IMG/VR virus record: IMGVR_UViG_3300024054_000032
Location: 1-38,641 of that record
DNA: 38,641 nucleotides
Reading direction: 5' to 3' (one strand)
From: a virus
A program made the translations under genes and the position numbers. How positions within the stretch are numbered: the first letter of the stretch is position 1; each line of letters opens with the position of its first letter. The notes beneath the pieces are model-generated. The model ran no database searches, was not told the DNA's origin, and worked only from the letters and a program-made list of their open reading frames with translations. This document shows, piece by piece, positions 7,401-17,062 of this stretch.

Positions 7401-7538
7401 AAGGGACTGGGCTGCACAGAGATGTGTGGCTCAATTTAACGGATGCATTAGATGAATAAACAAACCTGGAATTGGTAAATTTGGCGGTAGCAAGCAGAAC
7501 GGTCTATTTTAATGATTAACTTGAGCGAGAGGGATGGT
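7401..7538 (+). other. Short non-coding gap before the methyltransferase gene
   Basis: There is no complete gene here. One frame reads NKPGIGKFGGSKQNGLF before a stop at about 7511 but has no start codon, so it may be a gene remnant left by insertion of the flanking homing endonuclease or methyltransferase genes. Confidence 0.3.
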
Positions 7539-8741
7539 ATGAATTTGGATTCTGATTTTGAGAGTTCTACATTCTCAGTGGAGTCAAGCGGCTTGGCATC
7601 TACCGACACTACTGGTGCGCTTGATAAATCCATGCGTCGAGTAGCTAAATGGTCTTTTGGGGAAAGTCGCACTGGCAATGCACTAATTCACAGTGATAAC
7701 CTACATGCTCTAAAATTATTAGCAAAAACACACACTGGTTCGGTCAAGTGCATTTATCTTGACCCACCATATAACAATGGCGAAACCTATCAACATTATT
7801 TTGACAGTATGGGTCATGACGAGTGGCTAAAAACAGTTACAGACCGCCTAAAGCAACTTAGTGTACTGCTACGTAATGATGGATGTATCTGGATTTCTAT
7901 AGATGATTCAGAACTGCACTATCTTAAGGTGGCAGCGGACTCGGTATTTGGACGGAACAATTTCGTAGGCACGGTGGTATGGGAGAGGCGAACAACGCGA
8001 GAGAATCGTAAAGTCTTTTCGAGAAATAACGAATACCTGCTAGTTTATGCAAAAGATATTGTAACTTGGACGAAAACACGGAATTCACTGCCGCTAAATG
8101 ATGTGGTTAGAGAACGTTACAAAAACCCTGATTCAGATAAGCGCGGCCCATGGCAGTCTGTGTCAGCTAATGTACAGGAAGGACACGGCACCCCGCAGCA
8201 ATATTACACCATCAAAGCATCTAATGGACGAGTACATACTCCTCCAAAGGGAAGGTGTTGGGTTTATCCAGAGTCGAAAATGCTTGATGAAATAGCAAAA
8301 AATAATATTTGGTTTGGTAAAGACGGGAATGCAGTTCCAAGGTTAAAGCAGTTTCTGAAGGACAGGAAGGCAGGATTAACACCTGAAACTTTATGGCGAG
8401 CAGAAGATGTGGGTACAACAAGTAATGCAAAAAAGCACCTGTTAGAGTTATTTAAGGAAATCTCAGTTTTTGACACCCCTAAACCTGAGCAGTTGATTTA
8501 CAGAGTGCTACAAATCAGCACTAATCCTGGCGATATTGTTCTTGACCCGTATTTAGGGTCGGGGACAACCGTTGCTGTCGCGCATAAAATGAGCAGGGCT
8601 TATTTAGGTATTGAAATAGGTGATCACATTAAAACTCATTGTGTTAAACGTCTTAAGCAGGTTATTTCTGGTGAAACGGGCGGAATATCTAAAATGCTAG
8701 GATGGGAAGGTGGTGGAGGTTTTGATTTCTACCAAATCTAA
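7539..8741 (+). CDS. Orphan DNA methyltransferase, type III Mod-like (beta class)
   Basis: A 400-residue N6-adenine (or N4-cytosine) methyltransferase. Catalytic motif IV DPPY (75-78) comes before the SAM-binding motif DPYLGSGTT near the C-terminus, the beta-class order of type III Mod proteins. The middle is a target-recognition region of about 180 residues. No res gene is adjacent, so it probably protects phage DNA or regulates it as a solitary enzyme. The ATG at 7539 follows GAGAGGG; an in-frame ATG at 7512 is the alternative. The gene overlaps the next ORF. Confidence 0.9.
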   Translation: MNLDSDFESSTFSVESSGLASTDTTGALDKSMRRVAKWSFGESRTGNALIHSDNLHALKLLAKTHTGSVKCIYLDPPYNNGETYQHYFDSMGHDEWLKTVTDRLKQLSVLLRNDGCIWISIDDSELHYLKVAADSVFGRNNFVGTVVWERRTTRENRKVFSRNNEYLLVYAKDIVTWTKTRNSLPLNDVVRERYKNPDSDKRGPWQSVSANVQEGHGTPQQYYTIKASNGRVHTPPKGRCWVYPESKMLDEIAKNNIWFGKDGNAVPRLKQFLKDRKAGLTPETLWRAEDVGTTSNAKKHLLELFKEISVFDTPKPEQLIYRVLQISTNPGDIVLDPYLGSGTTVAVAHKMSRAYLGIEIGDHIKTHCVKRLKQVISGETGGISKMLGWEGGGGFDFYQI

Positions 8742-9153
8742 ATCTCTCAACAATAGACAAGGTAGCGAAGAAGCATTAAAGATGGCGATTGAATGGTTTG
8801 AACACAAAGGCTACTCAAACGAAAGGCAACCTATTTTAGAAGCATTGCGAGAAGCACTAGAACAACCATCCAATATGGTAACTGTTCCACGAGACAAACT
8901 ACAAGATATGCAGCGTAGGTTAAGTGACTGCGAGGAATATCTAAAAGAGGATGAAACACCAGCACAATGTATTGAACGAAATAGAAAAGCAAATCTCTAC
9001 CTACACCCACCACGCACAACCACATTATGTGACGATGAGATTGAAGCAATTTATAGTGTAGAAACTGGATTTTCTATGCACGAAGGTCATGGAAGTGATA
9101 TTGCATTATTGGATTTCGCAAGGGCAGTGCTTAGAAAGGCAGGCGTGGAATAA
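8710..9153 (+). CDS. Hypothetical protein downstream of the methyltransferase
   Basis: A protein of up to 147 residues. The start is uncertain: GTG at 8710 overlaps the methyltransferase end, and an ATG at 8782 (MAIEWFEHKG) would give about 123 residues. It has a helical N-terminal half with an ALREALEQ repeat-like segment, then a Cys-containing central helix (LSDCEEYLKED). The C-terminal IALLDFARAVLRKAGVE is an ending common among small phage early proteins. No function was recognised. The next gene starts within its stop codon (TAATG). Confidence 0.6.
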   Translation: MVEVLISTKSKSLNNRQGSEEALKMAIEWFEHKGYSNERQPILEALREALEQPSNMVTVPRDKLQDMQRRLSDCEEYLKEDETPAQCIERNRKANLYLHPPRTTTLCDDEIEAIYSVETGFSMHEGHGSDIALLDFARAVLRKAGVE

Positions 9154-9531: not shown

Positions 9532-10527
9532 ATGAGCTTACTACCGACAACAATTAATTTAATCAACAAGCATCACGAGGATGTGCGTGAAATGCCTAGA
9601 CCGCACATGGGTTGCTCTATGCTAGGGCATAAATGTGAGCGATGGTTATGGTTATCTTTCAGATGGGCTGTCATTCCTAAGTTTGATGGAAGGATGCTGC
9701 GCTTATTTAGACGCGGACACGAAGAAGAAAAGTTTGTTATACGCGATTTGCGTAGTATTGGCGTAGATGTGCATGGCACACAGACGCGAGTAGATTTTGG
9801 TAAGCATGTATCAGGCTCACTTGACGGCATCATTATGTCTGGGTTGCCTGAATCGCCAAATAAGAAGCATATGCTTGAGATTAAAACGCACTCAGACAAG
9901 TCGTTCAATGAACTAGAGAAGAATGGCGTTGAGAAGGCAAAGCCTTTGCATTGGGTGCAGATGCAAGTTTATATGCTTGGAACTAAGCTAGAACGTGCTT
10001 TCTATTACGCCATTAATAAGAATGATGACAGAATTTACACAGAGCGTGTGAAGTTGGATAAGAAAGTGGCGGAGCATTATATTGAACGTGGTCAACGTAT
10101 TGCGATGCAGGAAGGATTACCACATCCATTATCAACTGATCCGAGCTGGTACGATTGTAAATGGTGTGATGCACATTCTTTTTGCCACAAGACAAAGATG
10201 ATTAAAGAGAGCAATTGCCGTACCTGCGCTCACTCGACACCAATGGAAGATAGCACATGGAAATGTACGCGCTATGATGCAACTATCCCACTTGATGCAC
10301 AGCATCAAGGGTGCGATGCTCATGTGTTACACCCGGGGCTTGTGCCGTATGAGTTTAAGCCAGGGCGGGATGAGTGGCACGCCATTTATATTATTAATGG
10401 CAAAGATGTAGAAAACGGAGAACACGGATTTAAGTCTAGCGAGATTATTGCTAATCCTGCTGAGTGTGCAGAACCATGTGAAATGACTAAGACTTTGAGA
10501 GATGAGATGGGGGGGAGGTTGGTGTGA
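9532..10527 (+). CDS. Cas4-like PD-(D/E)XK exonuclease with Fe-S cysteines
   Basis: A 331-residue nuclease. The active site is GSLDG (D98) and LEIKTH (E116, K118), with the downstream Q in WVQMQVYM. Cysteines C209, C212 and C218 (CKWCDAHSFC), with C28 or C35 near the N-terminus, match the four-Cys Fe-S layout of Cas4, AddB and Dna2 nucleases. A second Cys group (CRTC, WKC, GCD; about 230-270) probably binds zinc. It likely resects DNA ends for phage recombination, working with the helicase encoded next. Confidence 0.87.
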   Translation: MSLLPTTINLINKHHEDVREMPRPHMGCSMLGHKCERWLWLSFRWAVIPKFDGRMLRLFRRGHEEEKFVIRDLRSIGVDVHGTQTRVDFGKHVSGSLDGIIMSGLPESPNKKHMLEIKTHSDKSFNELEKNGVEKAKPLHWVQMQVYMLGTKLERAFYYAINKNDDRIYTERVKLDKKVAEHYIERGQRIAMQEGLPHPLSTDPSWYDCKWCDAHSFCHKTKMIKESNCRTCAHSTPMEDSTWKCTRYDATIPLDAQHQGCDAHVLHPGLVPYEFKPGRDEWHAIYIINGKDVENGEHGFKSSEIIANPAECAEPCEMTKTLRDEMGGRLV

Positions 10528-10625
10528 ATGTAAAACCAATGTTTTCTAGTGAAACAAATGCGAAGAATTCTGCACCATTTCCTTCTGCCGTTGTTATATT
10601 TTATGGAGTAAACAATGCTCCGTGA
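10524..10625 (+). CDS. Possible 33-residue overlapping peptide
   Basis: A short ORF from GTG at 10524 that overlaps the exonuclease stop and the first bases of the helicase gene. A GGGAGG site lies 5 bases upstream, better than expected by chance. The peptide (VNVKPMFSSETNAKNSAP, then VVIFYGVNNAP) has no known relative to me. It may serve only to couple translation to the helicase. Confidence 0.3.
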   Translation: MNVKPMFSSETNAKNSAPFPSAVVIFYGVNNAP

Positions 10626-12195
10626 CTACCAACAACGTGCCATCGACCAACTCTACGAGTGGTTTAGAAGTAACACAGGACACCCTTGCTTAGTGTCGCC
10701 GACAGGGTCTGGTAAATCTCACATTGTCGCTGCGCTTTGCAAAGATGCTGTAAAGAACTGGCCTGATACTCGTGTTCTGATGCTGACGCACGTTAAGGAA
10801 TTGATTGAGCAGAACGCTGAGAAGATGCGCTTGCATTGGTCTAATGCACCGATGGGCATTTACTCAGCAAGTATTGGAAAGCGTCAGTTGGGTGAGGCAA
10901 TCACCTTTGCAGGTATTCAGTCTGTGCGTAATAAGTCTAAGGCAATTGGTCATATTGACCTGTGCATTATTGATGAGTGTCACTTAGTGTCACACAAAGA
11001 CGAAGGTGGCTATCGGACTTTAATCAATGAATTATTGGAAATCAATCCGAACATGCGAGTGGTAGGGTTATCTGCTACCCCCTATCGTCTTGGACACGGA
11101 TTGATTACGGATAAACCAGCCTTGTTTGATGCGTTGATTGAGCCTGTCAGTATTGAGGAACTCATCTATAAAGGATTCCTTGCACCGCTTCGCTCTAGGG
11201 TTACAGAGTTAAAATTATCAACAGAAGGTGTACATACGCGCGGCGGTGAGTTTATTGAATCAGAGCTTCAAGCAATGGTTGATACCAGCGATAATAATGA
11301 TGCAGTAGTAGATGAAGTGATTAGCCTTGCTGAAGATAGGAAGGCGTGGTTATTCTTTTGCGCTGGTGTGGATCATGCACAGCACATTAAGAATGTGTTG
11401 CTCAAAAGAGGAATTACGGCAGAATGTATCACAGGAGCAACACCTAAAGCTGAACGTGCAAATATACTGTCAGAGTATAAAGCTGGCAGAATACGCGCAT
11501 TGACTAACTGTGATGTACTCACCACAGGTTTTGACTATCCTGACATCGACTTGATTGCAATGCTTAGACCTACCATGTCACCTAGTCTTTATGTACAGAT
11601 GGCTGGGCGCGGACTTAGACCTAAGAGCCATACAGACCATTGCCTAGTCCTCGACTTTGCAGGGGTTGTTGAAACTCATGGCCCGATAACCAATGTAAAG
11701 CCACCGAAGAAAGGTGGCTCAGGCGATGGCCAAGCCCCGATTAAGGTGTGTGATGCTTGCCATGAGATTGTGCATATCAGCACAGAAGCATGCCCTAATT
11801 GTGGCGCACCGTTTCCAATAAGAGAGAAACCAGCGTTAGAGCTTCGAGATGTGGACATTATGGGCGTTCACGGCACTCCGATGGTAGTCAAGAAATGGGA
11901 TTGGATGAAGTGCTATAGCAAGACCAGTGGCACAGAGATGATTAAGATTACTTATTATGGTGGCTTATCTGATAAACCAATAAAAGAATGCCTATGTATT
12001 AAACACGGCGGCTGGGCAGCGCAGAAGGCAGTTCAGTTATTGACTATACTCTTAAACCGTACAGGACAATTCATGCCTGTTGACGGTGATATTAATACAT
12101 TATGTATTCAGATGAATAAGGTTGCTAGCCCGAAAGAGATTGAATATCGAATGGAAGGCAAGTATGCGAGAGTTTTATACAGGAAATTTGAATGA
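10615..12195 (+). CDS. SF2 DEAD/DEAH-box helicase (SSL2-like)
   Basis: A 526-residue superfamily-2 helicase. Motif I is PTGSGKS (29-35), motif II DECH (120-123), motif III SATPYR and motif VI QMAGRGLRP. A C-terminal zinc finger follows (CDAC...CPNC). The N-terminal LRDYQQRAIDQLYEWF is the Q-like region of the SSL2/RecG-like phage helicases. It probably supports replication or recombination beside the Cas4-like and VRR nucleases. GGAG precedes the ATG, and its last 4 bases overlap the VRR-NUC start. Confidence 0.92.
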   Translation: MLRDYQQRAIDQLYEWFRSNTGHPCLVSPTGSGKSHIVAALCKDAVKNWPDTRVLMLTHVKELIEQNAEKMRLHWSNAPMGIYSASIGKRQLGEAITFAGIQSVRNKSKAIGHIDLCIIDECHLVSHKDEGGYRTLINELLEINPNMRVVGLSATPYRLGHGLITDKPALFDALIEPVSIEELIYKGFLAPLRSRVTELKLSTEGVHTRGGEFIESELQAMVDTSDNNDAVVDEVISLAEDRKAWLFFCAGVDHAQHIKNVLLKRGITAECITGATPKAERANILSEYKAGRIRALTNCDVLTTGFDYPDIDLIAMLRPTMSPSLYVQMAGRGLRPKSHTDHCLVLDFAGVVETHGPITNVKPPKKGGSGDGQAPIKVCDACHEIVHISTEACPNCGAPFPIREKPALELRDVDIMGVHGTPMVVKKWDWMKCYSKTSGTEMIKITYYGGLSDKPIKECLCIKHGGWAAQKAVQLLTILLNRTGQFMPVDGDINTLCIQMNKVASPKEIEYRMEGKYARVLYRKFE

Positions 12196-14120: not shown

Positions 14121-14214
14121 GTGGCATGACATTATATTCCCGCCAATTAACTTATGGAGTTTTTGGCTAAACTCCATGAGTTTGCTACACTTCGCACATT
14201 ATGGCAGGTTCTAA
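14113..14214 (+). CDS. Small hypothetical protein with FPPINLW motif
   Basis: A 33-residue ORF, MLEWHDIIFPPINLWSFWLN, ending inside the next gene. The IIFPPINLW core recurs in tiny phage proteins, which is the main support. It overlaps the DUF3310 end by 8 bp and the restriction-modification gene start by 14 bp, and it spans that gene's putative promoter and palindrome. Confidence 0.45.
   Translation: MLEWHDIIFPPINLWSFWLNSMSLLHFAHYGRF
14154..14177. promoter_or_regulatory. Palindromic candidate operator over the R-M promoter
   Basis: A perfect 9-bp inverted repeat, ATGGAGTTT (14154-14162) with AAACTCCAT (14169-14177). The six central bases TTGGCT are the -35 box of the downstream promoter. 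A dimeric repressor bound here would block the promoter; alternatively it may be a weak hairpin. Confidence 0.5.
14163..14191 (+). promoter_or_regulatory. Putative promoter of the restriction-modification gene
   Basis: TTGGCT (14163-14168), a 17-nt spacer and TACACT (14186-14191). The transcript would begin around 14198-14201, at or next to the ATG at 14201, giving a leaderless mRNA; no Shine-Dalgarno is present before that ATG, which fits. Confidence 0.45.
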
Positions 14215-16243
14215 AAAAGATTTCACGCAAGCGGCATTTGATGTGTTTCAGCAAGCAATTGGTGAGGCAGAAAAACCTATGCCTTTAACCGGCAGAAAAG
14301 CCAACAGTAGTAAAGGCGGTAAAATTGGCGGGGCTAAACGTGCAGAATCCATGACGGAAGAACAAAGAGCAGAGCAAGCTAAGAAGGCTGCCGATGCGCG
14401 ATGGGCTTCTACCCCCCCCCGCAAAAGACGTGCCAAAGTAAGTCTGAATGAAGCGATTACCACAGATTTAGTACGTGATTATCTAAGAAAACTTGGCTAC
14501 GACAATGACAAATCCATTGTGATTGAACGTGAGAAAACCGCAGATTCACAGATAGACAAACTTCTACAAACGGCTTCTAAAAAAGGTAGCGGCATAGGTC
14601 GACCTGATTTTATTATCACCAGCCCACAAACAGTAAAAAACTTGGTATGTGTTGTTGAGTGCAAGGCTGATGTTGCCAAACATAAAAGCGATACGCTGAC
14701 CAAATATGCGGATTACGCAGTAGATGGCGCAAAGCTGTACGCAACCTACCTATCCAAAGAAAAAGATGTTTTGTATATTGGTGTTAGCGGACAAAACGAG
14801 CAAGAGCTACGGGTGAATCATTACCTGCAACTCAAAAACGAAAAGCCAGCAGAGGTATTTAACCCCAATAAGCTATATCCGTTTAAAGACTACATTGAGC
14901 AGTACAAAAAAGCACGGTTTCGGGTTGATTATGAGGCTTTAATTAAATACACCCGAGACTTAAACGGTGAATTACATAAGAAAAAAATTCCTGAACATAA
15001 CCGTGCCATTTTGTTTAGTGGCATATTGATTGCGCTGGAAGATGATACCTTTCATGACACCTTTGCCAGCTACACCAACGCAAAACGCCTAAGTGATTTT
15101 CTGGTTGAAAGTGTTACTCAAAAACTGGAATACGCAAACATCCCCAAAACCCGTGTCCATGAGATGCAGCAGGCGTATAACTTCATCAAATCGCACACTG
15201 CCTTGATTGATGAGGGCTACTTAATCACGCTGGTGAGCGAAATTCACAAAGAAGTACGCCCGTTCATCAAGTCCAACCAGCACTTTGACATTATCAGCCA
15301 TTGTTATGTGGAATTTCTGAAATATGCGAATAACGATAGCGGGTTAGGGATTGTACTCACCCCAGCGCACATTACTGAGCTATTTTGCGAACTGGCAAAC
15401 GTCACCAAAGACAGCGTGGTGTTGGATAACTGTTGTGGCACATCCAGCTTTTTGATTGCTGCAATGCAAAAGATGATTACGCAAGCTAATGGTGATCAAA
15501 CCGAGATTGAGAAAATCAAAAAAGAACGCTTGGTAGGTATTGAGTATCAAGACCATATTTTTACGCTTGCCGTATCGAATATGATTATTCACGGCGATGG
15601 TAAAACAAACATCATCAAAGGCGATTGCTTTAAAAAAATCCAAGATACGCACAAATACAAGCCAACAGTAGGTCTGCTCAATCCGCCTTACAATGACGTA
15701 ACTGGTATTGATGAACTCGTGTTTATCGAGAATAACCTATCAGCCATCGAGAAAAACGGCATAGTTGTGGCGATTGTACCGATGCGATGTGCGCTATATC
15801 AAGATGGTCAAGGTGATATACTCAAGCAAAGGTTGCTTGATAGTCACACACTGGAAGCTGTTATGTCTATGCCAGATGATTTGTTTTACCCCGTTGGCAC
15901 AGTCACATGTGTGATGGTGTTTAGAGCGCAAATTCCGCACGCCGTGAGCAACAAAAAAACGTGGTTTGGTTATTGGAAGAGTGACGGCTTTGCAAAAGTT
16001 AAACATCGTGGACGTGTTGATGCAAATAACTTATGGCAGAGTATTAAATCACATTGGCTTGAAATGTACCGTAACCGTGAGTCGAAGGCAGGTGAAAGTA
16101 TCCTGCAATATGTTGGCGCAAAGGATGAATGGTGTGCAGAAGCCTATATGGAAACTGACTACTCTCAACTTTCTCAGTCCTCTTTTGAAGAGTCTGTTAA
16201 GAAATTTATTGCCTTTAATCTCATAAGCAGCCAAGAGACTTAG
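14201..16243 (+). CDS. Fused restriction endonuclease / N6-adenine methyltransferase (BcgI-like RM subunit)
   Basis: A 680-residue single-chain R-M protein. Residues 36-70 hold a basic GGKIGGAKRAES...RKAADARW-like segment. About 85-200 is a PD-(D/E)XK nuclease domain like the HsdR N-terminus, with RPDFII (P135, D136) and VECKAD (E153, K155). From about 265 follows an HsdM-type gamma-class methylase: LTPAHI (386-391), SAM motif LDNCCGTSSFL (408-418) and NPPY (494-497). R, M and a separate S subunit are the layout of BcgI-type type IIB enzymes. Motif I reads NCCGT instead of the usual PxCGS/T. A C9 tract interrupts the linker (14412-14420). The S gene follows 2 bases later. Confidence 0.85.
   Translation: MAGSKKDFTQAAFDVFQQAIGEAEKPMPLTGRKANSSKGGKIGGAKRAESMTEEQRAEQAKKAADARWASTPPRKRRAKVSLNEAITTDLVRDYLRKLGYDNDKSIVIEREKTADSQIDKLLQTASKKGSGIGRPDFIITSPQTVKNLVCVVECKADVAKHKSDTLTKYADYAVDGAKLYATYLSKEKDVLYIGVSGQNEQELRVNHYLQLKNEKPAEVFNPNKLYPFKDYIEQYKKARFRVDYEALIKYTRDLNGELHKKKIPEHNRAILFSGILIALEDDTFHDTFASYTNAKRLSDFLVESVTQKLEYANIPKTRVHEMQQAYNFIKSHTALIDEGYLITLVSEIHKEVRPFIKSNQHFDIISHCYVEFLKYANNDSGLGIVLTPAHITELFCELANVTKDSVVLDNCCGTSSFLIAAMQKMITQANGDQTEIEKIKKERLVGIEYQDHIFTLAVSNMIIHGDGKTNIIKGDCFKKIQDTHKYKPTVGLLNPPYNDVTGIDELVFIENNLSAIEKNGIVVAIVPMRCALYQDGQGDILKQRLLDSHTLEAVMSMPDDLFYPVGTVTCVMVFRAQIPHAVSNKKTWFGYWKSDGFAKVKHRGRVDANNLWQSIKSHWLEMYRNRESKAGESILQYVGAKDEWCAEAYMETDYSQLSQSSFEESVKKFIAFNLISSQET
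14412..14420 (+). repeat. C9 homopolymer tract inside the R-M gene
   Basis: Nine consecutive C residues encode T-P-P-R at residues 71-74, between the basic N-terminal segment and the nuclease domain. As read, the frame is intact. Gain or loss of one base would truncate the protein near residue 75. Confidence 0.9.
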
Positions 16244-16245
16244 AT

Positions 16246-16710
16246 ATGAATCTTGTAAGATTAGATGAGTTATTTGATGTTAAATACGGTTCAAATCTTG
16301 AGCTAAATGCGCTACATAAAGATGAGCATGGCATAAATTTTGTTTCTCGTACTGCTAAAAATAATGGCGTTTCTGCGAAAGTAAAACCAATTAGCGGATT
16401 AGACCCGATACCAGCAGGTGTTTTAACAGTAGCGGGCGGTGGCTCTGTATTAGAAACTTTCTTGCAAAACAAGCCGTTTTATTCAGGCCGAGATTTATAT
16501 TACTTAATTCCAAAAACAGGAATGTCAGATACGCAAAAATTGTTTTACGCGTTCTGTATTCGAACAAACAAATATAAATACAATTATGGCAGACAAGCTA
16601 ATAAAACTTTACGAAGCATAATGATTCCCGATCTATCCGAAGTTCCCGATTGGATTGAATTGTCAGTCAAAAAAATAAAGAAAAATGTAATTAAAAACAT
16701 AGGTTTATAA
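16246..16710 (+). CDS. Half-sized HsdS-like DNA specificity subunit
   Basis: A 154-residue protein with one target-recognition domain of the type I S family: VRLDELFDVKYGSNLELNAL, then INFVSRTAKNNGV, PIPAGVLTVAGGGSVLETFL and the closing RQANKTLRSIMIP. Full HsdS proteins carry two such domains, so this one would need to dimerise and should then recognise a symmetrical bipartite site. It begins 2 bases after the fused R-M gene, so they form one unit. The end (VKKIKKNVIKNIGL) is basic and lacks a long coiled-coil spacer helix. Confidence 0.8.
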   Translation: MNLVRLDELFDVKYGSNLELNALHKDEHGINFVSRTAKNNGVSAKVKPISGLDPIPAGVLTVAGGGSVLETFLQNKPFYSGRDLYYLIPKTGMSDTQKLFYAFCIRTNKYKYNYGRQANKTLRSIMIPDLSEVPDWIELSVKKIKKNVIKNIGL

Positions 16711-16792: not shown

Positions 16793-17062
16793 ATGAACAG
16801 ACTAGATAACAAAGAACGCGCCAATATCCTCAGAATTATTTGCGAAGGCATGGGGATTAACGCGACATGCCGTGTGACTGGCGCATCTAAAAACACTGTT
16901 CTAAAACTGCTGGCTGATGTAGGTAAAGAAGGCGAAGCTAACTTTGATTTAATCTTTGGTAAGAAGAAAACAAACGGCGGTTGGGTGCCACCCCCATTAT
17001 CGTTAAATGAATACCCAGATAACGGTGAGATTTCAGATGAACCGCCTAGAAATGAATGGTGA
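16793..17062 (+). CDS. InsA-like helix-turn-helix protein
   Basis: An 89-residue protein. Residues 1-45 (MNRLDNKERANILRIICEGM, then NATCRVTGASKNTVLKLLADVG) closely match the N-terminal DNA-binding domain of IS1-type InsA/transposase proteins. The rest is unlike a transposase: a GKKKTNGG turn and an acidic, proline-rich tail (PPPLSLNEYPDNGE). No catalytic domain, IS ends or target duplication are seen, so it looks domesticated as a small regulator. It has its own strong promoter and AAGGG ribosome site; an in-frame upstream ATG at 16735 would lie inside the promoter. Confidence 0.75.
   Translation: MNRLDNKERANILRIICEGMGINATCRVTGASKNTVLKLLADVGKEGEANFDLIFGKKKTNGGWVPPPLSLNEYPDNGEISDEPPRNEW

What the first reader, a model, noticed from the sequence alone, without database searches (positions are those of the whole stretch)
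14201..16710. Compact phage-borne R-M system: R and M in one chain with a half-sized specificity subunit
An intact PD...ECK nuclease domain precedes a complete gamma-class methylase, and the adjacent 154-residue S protein has only one target domain. This follows the BcgI-type logic but with a minimal S subunit that must dimerise, predicting a symmetrical, interrupted recognition site. An active restriction enzyme in a phage could destroy competing phages or plasmids (superinfection exclusion) while methylating its own DNA. This is the strongest candidate in the window for a little-described system.
Basis: partly seen in the sequence, partly recalled or inferred. Interest (0 to 1): 0.8.

Follow-up and report, generated by a model that had tools for sequence, protein, structure and literature searches.

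The report
Phage restriction system with half-sized S
This phage carries a complete two-gene DNA cut-and-mark (restriction-modification) system whose DNA-reading subunit is half the usual size, a natural version of something so far shown mainly by engineering, and the gene also has a slippery run of nine Cs that may switch it between states.

Summary
14201-16243 encodes a 680-aa chain with a PD-ExK nuclease (D136, E153, K155) and a gamma-class N6-adenine methylase (NPPY). 16246-16710 encodes a 154-aa S protein with one target domain; no other is detected in the record. It belongs to a large BcgI-like (Type IIB) family in which most relatives have a two-domain S, or one target domain fused to RM. 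The separate half-S is uncommon but real: a phage relative (66%) has a 155-aa S, and four relatives from different phyla form one clade with 161-172-aa S proteins. Best reading: an RM2:S2 enzyme for a symmetric, interrupted site, as in engineered half-S BsaXI and in M.AhdI. Dimerisation, cleavage and specificity are inferred. Phage-borne BcgI-like systems were already known (Sau42I).

A leader is joined to the nuclease through a C9 tract; the closest relative (Oxalobacter, 78%, full-length S) has C11 there, which shifts the frame, so length-dependent switching is plausible. A truncated transposase N-terminus lies downstream where Oxalobacter has a whole transposase, suggesting a mobile cassette. 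New variant of a known kind.

The parts
14201..16243 (+). RM gene, 680 aa: leader + PD-(D/E)xK nuclease + helical connector + gamma N6-adenine methyltransferase
14201..14411 (+). Leader (about 70 aa, 'KGGKIGGAKRA...ARW' motif, predicted mostly disordered); similar proteins occur elsewhere as separate small genes
   Evidence: shared with Oxalobacter L068
14412..14420 (+). Poly-C tract C9 (C11 in Oxalobacter L068); sets the reading frame between leader and nuclease
14401..14403 (+). Internal ATG that would read the RM frame if the tract were C8 or C11 (the equivalent in L068 is GTG 5192)
   Evidence: use as a start is inferred
14450..14860 (+). Nuclease domain (about residues 84-220); P135-D136 at 14603-14608, E153-C154-K155 at 14657-14665
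15287..16150 (+). Methyltransferase domain (about residues 363-650); motif I D409-N-C-C-G-T at 15425-15442, NPPY at 15680-15691
16246..16710 (+). Half-sized S gene, 154 aa, one TRD
16648..16698 (+). C-terminal amphipathic helix of S (residues 135-151), candidate dimerisation helix; resembles the tail of the L002 half-S
   Evidence: confidence falls towards the end
16793..17062 (+). Truncated transposase N-terminus (HTH); the intact transposase follows S in Oxalobacter L068

Best explanation
It is a motor-less restriction-modification system of the BcgI (Type IIB) kind carried as cargo by a siphophage. Shown by sequence: nuclease and adenine methylase share one chain, and the adjacent S gene has a single target domain. 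Inferred: two S chains pair, probably through their C-terminal helices, and recruit two RM chains (RM2:S2). The complex reads a symmetric, interrupted site, methylates one adenine in each half, and cuts unmodified DNA at a fixed distance on both sides. Also inferred, and less certain: the C9 tract lets slippage change the frame. C9 gives a leader-RM fusion, C8/C11 allows RM only from an internal start, and C7/C10 gives no RM. Because nuclease and methylase are one chain they switch together. The cassette probably arrived with a transposase, now truncated.
For: Family and domains. Fold matches of RM to HsdM, BsaXI RM, DrdV and BpuSI, and of S to HsdS and BsaXI S. Half-S recurs: L002 at 155 aa, and a supported clade (SH-like 99) of L018, L046, L049 and L056 at 161-172 aa; no second TRD is found in any of these five loci. 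The half-S is under constraint: window against L002, 55% aa identity, dN/dS about 0.2. Nuclease and methylase domains are about equally conserved against L068 (74% and 77%). Precedents: BsaXI half-S cleaves at ACN5GT (PMC9159934); M.AhdI is M2S2. C9 against C11 at the same site; 0.02 such runs expected by chance in the window.
Against: No biochemistry or methylome exists. The closest relative (L068, 78%) has a full two-domain S, so the window's half-S could be a secondary loss. The C-tail is only weakly similar to the tails of the four-member half-S clade (shuffle p about 0.1 for the window, 0.01 for L002), and AlphaFold confidence in the tail drops below 50 at its end. Within-population variation of the tract was not seen; only two homologues differ, and homopolymer miscalls are possible.
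Confidence: 0.6

Rival explanations
1. The S gene is a truncation remnant in a decaying cassette: TRD2 was lost (about 460 bp fewer than in Oxalobacter), the transposase beside it is broken too, and the system is inactive or nearly so.
For: L068 has a full 317-aa S and an intact transposase; the window lacks about 460 bp between the end of TRD1 and the shared downstream sequence, and has only the transposase N-terminus.
Against: A phage relative (L002) has a half-S of almost identical length with a related tail and no transposase, and dN/dS between the two half-S genes is about 0.2. Engineered half-S versions of BsaXI and of a Type I enzyme are active.
Confidence: 0.17
2. It serves mainly as a self-protection methylase: it marks phage DNA against a host restriction enzyme of related specificity, and cleavage matters little.
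For: Phages often carry orphan methylases (general knowledge), and this one has another at 7512-8741.
Against: The nuclease residues E153 and K155 are intact and invariant in the family, and the nuclease domain is about as conserved as the methylase domain.
Confidence: 0.12
3. The half-S pairs with a host S or TRD protein, giving an asymmetric site.
For: Half-S proteins can in principle form mixed pairs; the host is unknown.
Against: No second TRD in the record or in any of the other five half-S loci as fetched.
Confidence: 0.05
4. About the C9 tract only: it is read by transcriptional or ribosomal slippage, not by DNA-level phase variation, or it has no regulatory role.
For: Only two homologues carry it, and within-population length variation cannot be tested here.
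Against: C9 and C11 are found at the same site in about 70%-identical DNA, as expected of an unstable tract.
Confidence: 0.4

Closest known systems
BcgI-like Type IIB systems (BcgI, CspCI, BsaXI)
   Same: RM fusion plus separate S, no motor, gamma N6-methylase, N-terminal nuclease domain
   Different: Described S subunits carry two TRDs in one chain and form RM2:S1; here S has one TRD
Sau42I of Staphylococcus phage phi42
   Same: BcgI-like RM and S encoded by a phage; RM about 29% identical
   Different: Its S gene is full size, CDS 1949-2962, 337 codons
Engineered BsaXI TRD1-CR1 (PMC9159934)
   Same: Half-S plus RM cleaves at the symmetric site ACN5GT
   Different: Made in the laboratory; that paper found only two standalone TRD1 homologues and suspected sequencing errors or a missing helix
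M.AhdI and other 'Type 1 1/2' methylases (PMC3874165)
   Same: Natural single-TRD S with separate M; M.AhdI is M2S2
   Different: No nuclease in the M chain; restriction is a separate protein
Oxalobacter formigenes HC-1 locus (L068)
   Same: Leader, poly-C tract, RM (78%), S and HTH/transposase in the same order
   Different: C11 tract, two-domain 317-aa S, intact transposase, chromosomal location

Membership tests
Type IIB (BcgI-like) | Nuclease and gamma N6-methylase in one chain | tested here: met
Type IIB (BcgI-like) | Separate S subunit from an adjacent gene | tested here: met
   S starts 2 nt after the RM stop codon
Type IIB (BcgI-like) | S with two TRDs in one chain (2RM:1S) | tested here: not met
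   154 aa, one TRD, none elsewhere
Type IIB (BcgI-like) | No ATP-dependent motor in the enzyme | tested here: met
   no helicase domain in RM; the phage helicase at 10615-12195 is a separate gene
Type IIB (BcgI-like) | Cleaves on both sides of a bipartite site | not testable with these tools
   needs biochemistry
Type 1 1/2 methylase (M.AhdI) | Single-TRD S with separate M | tested here: met
Type 1 1/2 methylase (M.AhdI) | M chain without nuclease | tested here: not met
   nuclease domain fused
Type I R-M | HsdR with motor, as a separate subunit | tested here: not met
   no HsdR gene beside the system; nuclease is fused to M
Homopolymer phase-variable gene | Tract of variable length in the 5' coding region that changes frame | tested here: met
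   C9 against C11 between two homologues
Homopolymer phase-variable gene | Length variation within one population, with expression change | not testable with these tools
   no reads available

The most novel reading that the evidence does not exclude
A natural RM2:S2 Type IIB enzyme, a standing lineage and not a truncation, carried on a mobile cassette that moves between phages and chromosomes. A poly-C tract would switch it among three states: leader-fused RM, leaderless RM, and off.
Probability: 0.28. Interest if true: 0.65.

Novelty: new variant of a known kind. Interest (0 to 1): 0.5.

Why it matters
It is a candidate natural counterpart of half-S Type IIB enzymes so far made by engineering, and it fits the proposed evolutionary step between separate TRDs and fused two-TRD subunits. 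About 600 aa of RM plus 154 aa of S may be a very compact restriction enzyme for a gapped palindrome. If the C tract varies in length, one phage population would hold genomes with and without restriction and protection.

Tried and rejected
(1) A second TRD elsewhere in the window: none. (2) S truncated by a frameshift: no TRD2 remnant found in any frame downstream. (3) One common tail motif for all half-S proteins: window and L002 tails resemble each other, but the match of the window to the four-member clade is not significant. (4) L029 and L087 as half-S: set aside, TRD2 sequence lies downstream in another ORF, so probably broken genes or sequencing errors. (5) Half-S protein search in viral contigs: no relatives found; relatives came through the RM query. 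(6) Leader as a known Pfam domain: no hit. (7) Oxalobacter locus as a prophage: the neighbours read as an outer-membrane efflux gene and a phosphofructokinase gene, not phage genes (functions judged from the sequences by eye). (8) Other Oxalobacter genomes for tract-length variation: of 13 genomes in the genus, none but HC-1 has a close copy. (9) Leader in phage records: no match.

Full report
The observation. The window is a 38,641-base virus record. The first matches the PADLOC Type IIG REase-methyltransferase model PDLC03608 over residues 78-674 (E=1e-140) and Pfam N6_Mtase. The nuclease motif is P135-D136 ... E153 and K155 are invariant in 44 aligned homologues, and position 136 is mostly E in relatives. 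The second matches Pfam Methylase_S and only positions 1-138 of the 322-position PADLOC Specificity_II model. No other target domain was found in the window.

Structure. AlphaFold2 models are confident (RM mean pLDDT 86.8, S 89.4). Most of the first 80 residues of RM have low confidence. Foldseek places RM with HsdM proteins and with the full-length Type IIB/IIG enzymes BsaXI, DrdV and BpuSI, and S with HsdS and BsaXI S. The S model ends in a helix, residues 135-151, whose confidence falls along its length.

Relatives. A scan of one genome per species found 318 relatives, of which the best 80 were kept; the larger viral-contig scan gave 28 loci. After removal of duplicates, 98 RM proteins were placed in a tree: 67 with a full S, 22 with a single TRD fused to RM, 7 with a half-S, and 2 others. 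One half-S (L029) is probably a broken gene. Credible half-S systems are the window, the viral contig L002 (RM 66% identical, S 155 aa), and a supported clade (SH-like 99) of L056, L018, L046 and L049, from Saccharibacteria, Phycisphaerae, Chloracidobacterium and Chloroflexi records, with S of 161-172 aa. No second TRD lies in any of these five fetched loci. The half-S is thus a recurrent form of the family, not a single accident. The 80 kept genome loci are the best-scoring ones, so the proportions are not a census of the family.

Where the window's half-S comes from. The closest RM (78%) is in Oxalobacter formigenes HC-1 (L068), whose S is full length (317 aa) and 74% identical over the first half. 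Between the end of TRD1 and the shared downstream sequence the window has 131 nt and Oxalobacter 594 nt. On the tree, window and L068 are sisters with L002 outside. Either the half-S is ancestral to the three and L068 gained TRD2, or it was lost twice. The tails of the window and L002 end at nearly the same position and are weakly similar (shuffle p about 0.012), which slightly favours the first; the window tail is not significantly like those of the other half-S clade. Half-S divergence between window and L002 shows constraint (dN/dS about 0.2 with dS near saturation). The nuclease domain is about as conserved as the methylase domain against L068 (74% and 77%), which argues against a methylase-only role.

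Mechanism. In BcgI and BsaXI one S chain with two TRDs holds two RM chains (PMC3874165; PMC11997821). Deleting TRD2-CR2 from BsaXI S gave an active enzyme that cleaves at the symmetric ACN5GT (PMC9159934), and engineered half-HsdS Type I enzymes read gapped palindromes (PMC6158711). Natural single-TRD S subunits are known in M.AhdI, an M2S2 methylase (PMC3874165). By analogy the phage enzyme should be RM2:S2 with a symmetric interrupted site. The stoichiometry, site, methylation and cleavage are inferred. The BsaXI paper found only two standalone TRD1 homologues and doubted them, so a supported lineage of natural half-S Type IIB-like systems is a modest but real addition. I found no paper describing one in the library searched, but my searches were few and the library lacks most subscription journals and REBASE.

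The first ~82 residues are absent from nearly all relatives but shared with Oxalobacter, and similar small proteins occur alone in other genomes. Leader and nuclease are joined through C9 at 14412-14420, a run expected 0.02 times by chance in the window. Oxalobacter has C11 at the same place, so the leader frame there ends at 87 aa and RM is in another frame. Of the RM loci examined only these two have such a tract in or just before the RM gene. By translation of altered tract lengths, C9 (or C6, C12) gives the fusion, C8 or C11 gives RM only from an internal start (ATG 14401; GTG 5192 in L068), and C7 or C10 gives no RM (the script labels the internal start 14395, but the ATG it reads is at 14401). 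This is what a phase-variable gene looks like, but with two sequences only, and with homopolymer miscalls possible, it is a hypothesis.

Cassette. Right after S, Oxalobacter has an intact transposase-like gene (8047-8934) and the window has only its N-terminal HTH part (16793-17062) with related upstream sequence. In Oxalobacter the genes flanking the cassette do not look like phage genes. A related phage contig (L133) has the neighbouring DUF3310 gene but no RM after it. The system therefore looks like cargo. A phage-borne BcgI-like system is already described, Sau42I of phi42, whose S is full size.

Verdict. Real, intact by sequence, and correctly read as BcgI-like with a half-S. It is a new variant of a known kind. 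The role in superinfection exclusion is plausible and untested.

Noticed in passing
window 14412-14420; L068 5203-5213: C9 tract in the window and C11 in Oxalobacter at the same position between a leader and the nuclease domain; the length difference changes the reading frame.
   Followed up: yes
window 16793-17062; L068 8047-8934: A short HTH ORF in the window matches the N-terminal part of a transposase-like gene that is intact beside the Oxalobacter system.
   Followed up: partly
L139 1142, L179 8686, L184 3336, L187 1709, L189 2673, L204 1992: Related phage contigs carry G10-G12 tracts between the Cas4-like exonuclease and helicase genes; the window has G7 at 10509-10515, at the end of its exonuclease gene. 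Possible further slippery tracts in this phage group.
   Followed up: partly
22 of 98 relatives, e.g. L015, L033, L117: RM proteins of about 770-800 aa with a single TRD fused at the C-terminus, scattered over the tree; another natural one-TRD form.
   Followed up: partly
window 7512-8741: A second DNA methyltransferase (N6_N4_Mtase), with no partner nuclease looked for.
   Followed up: no
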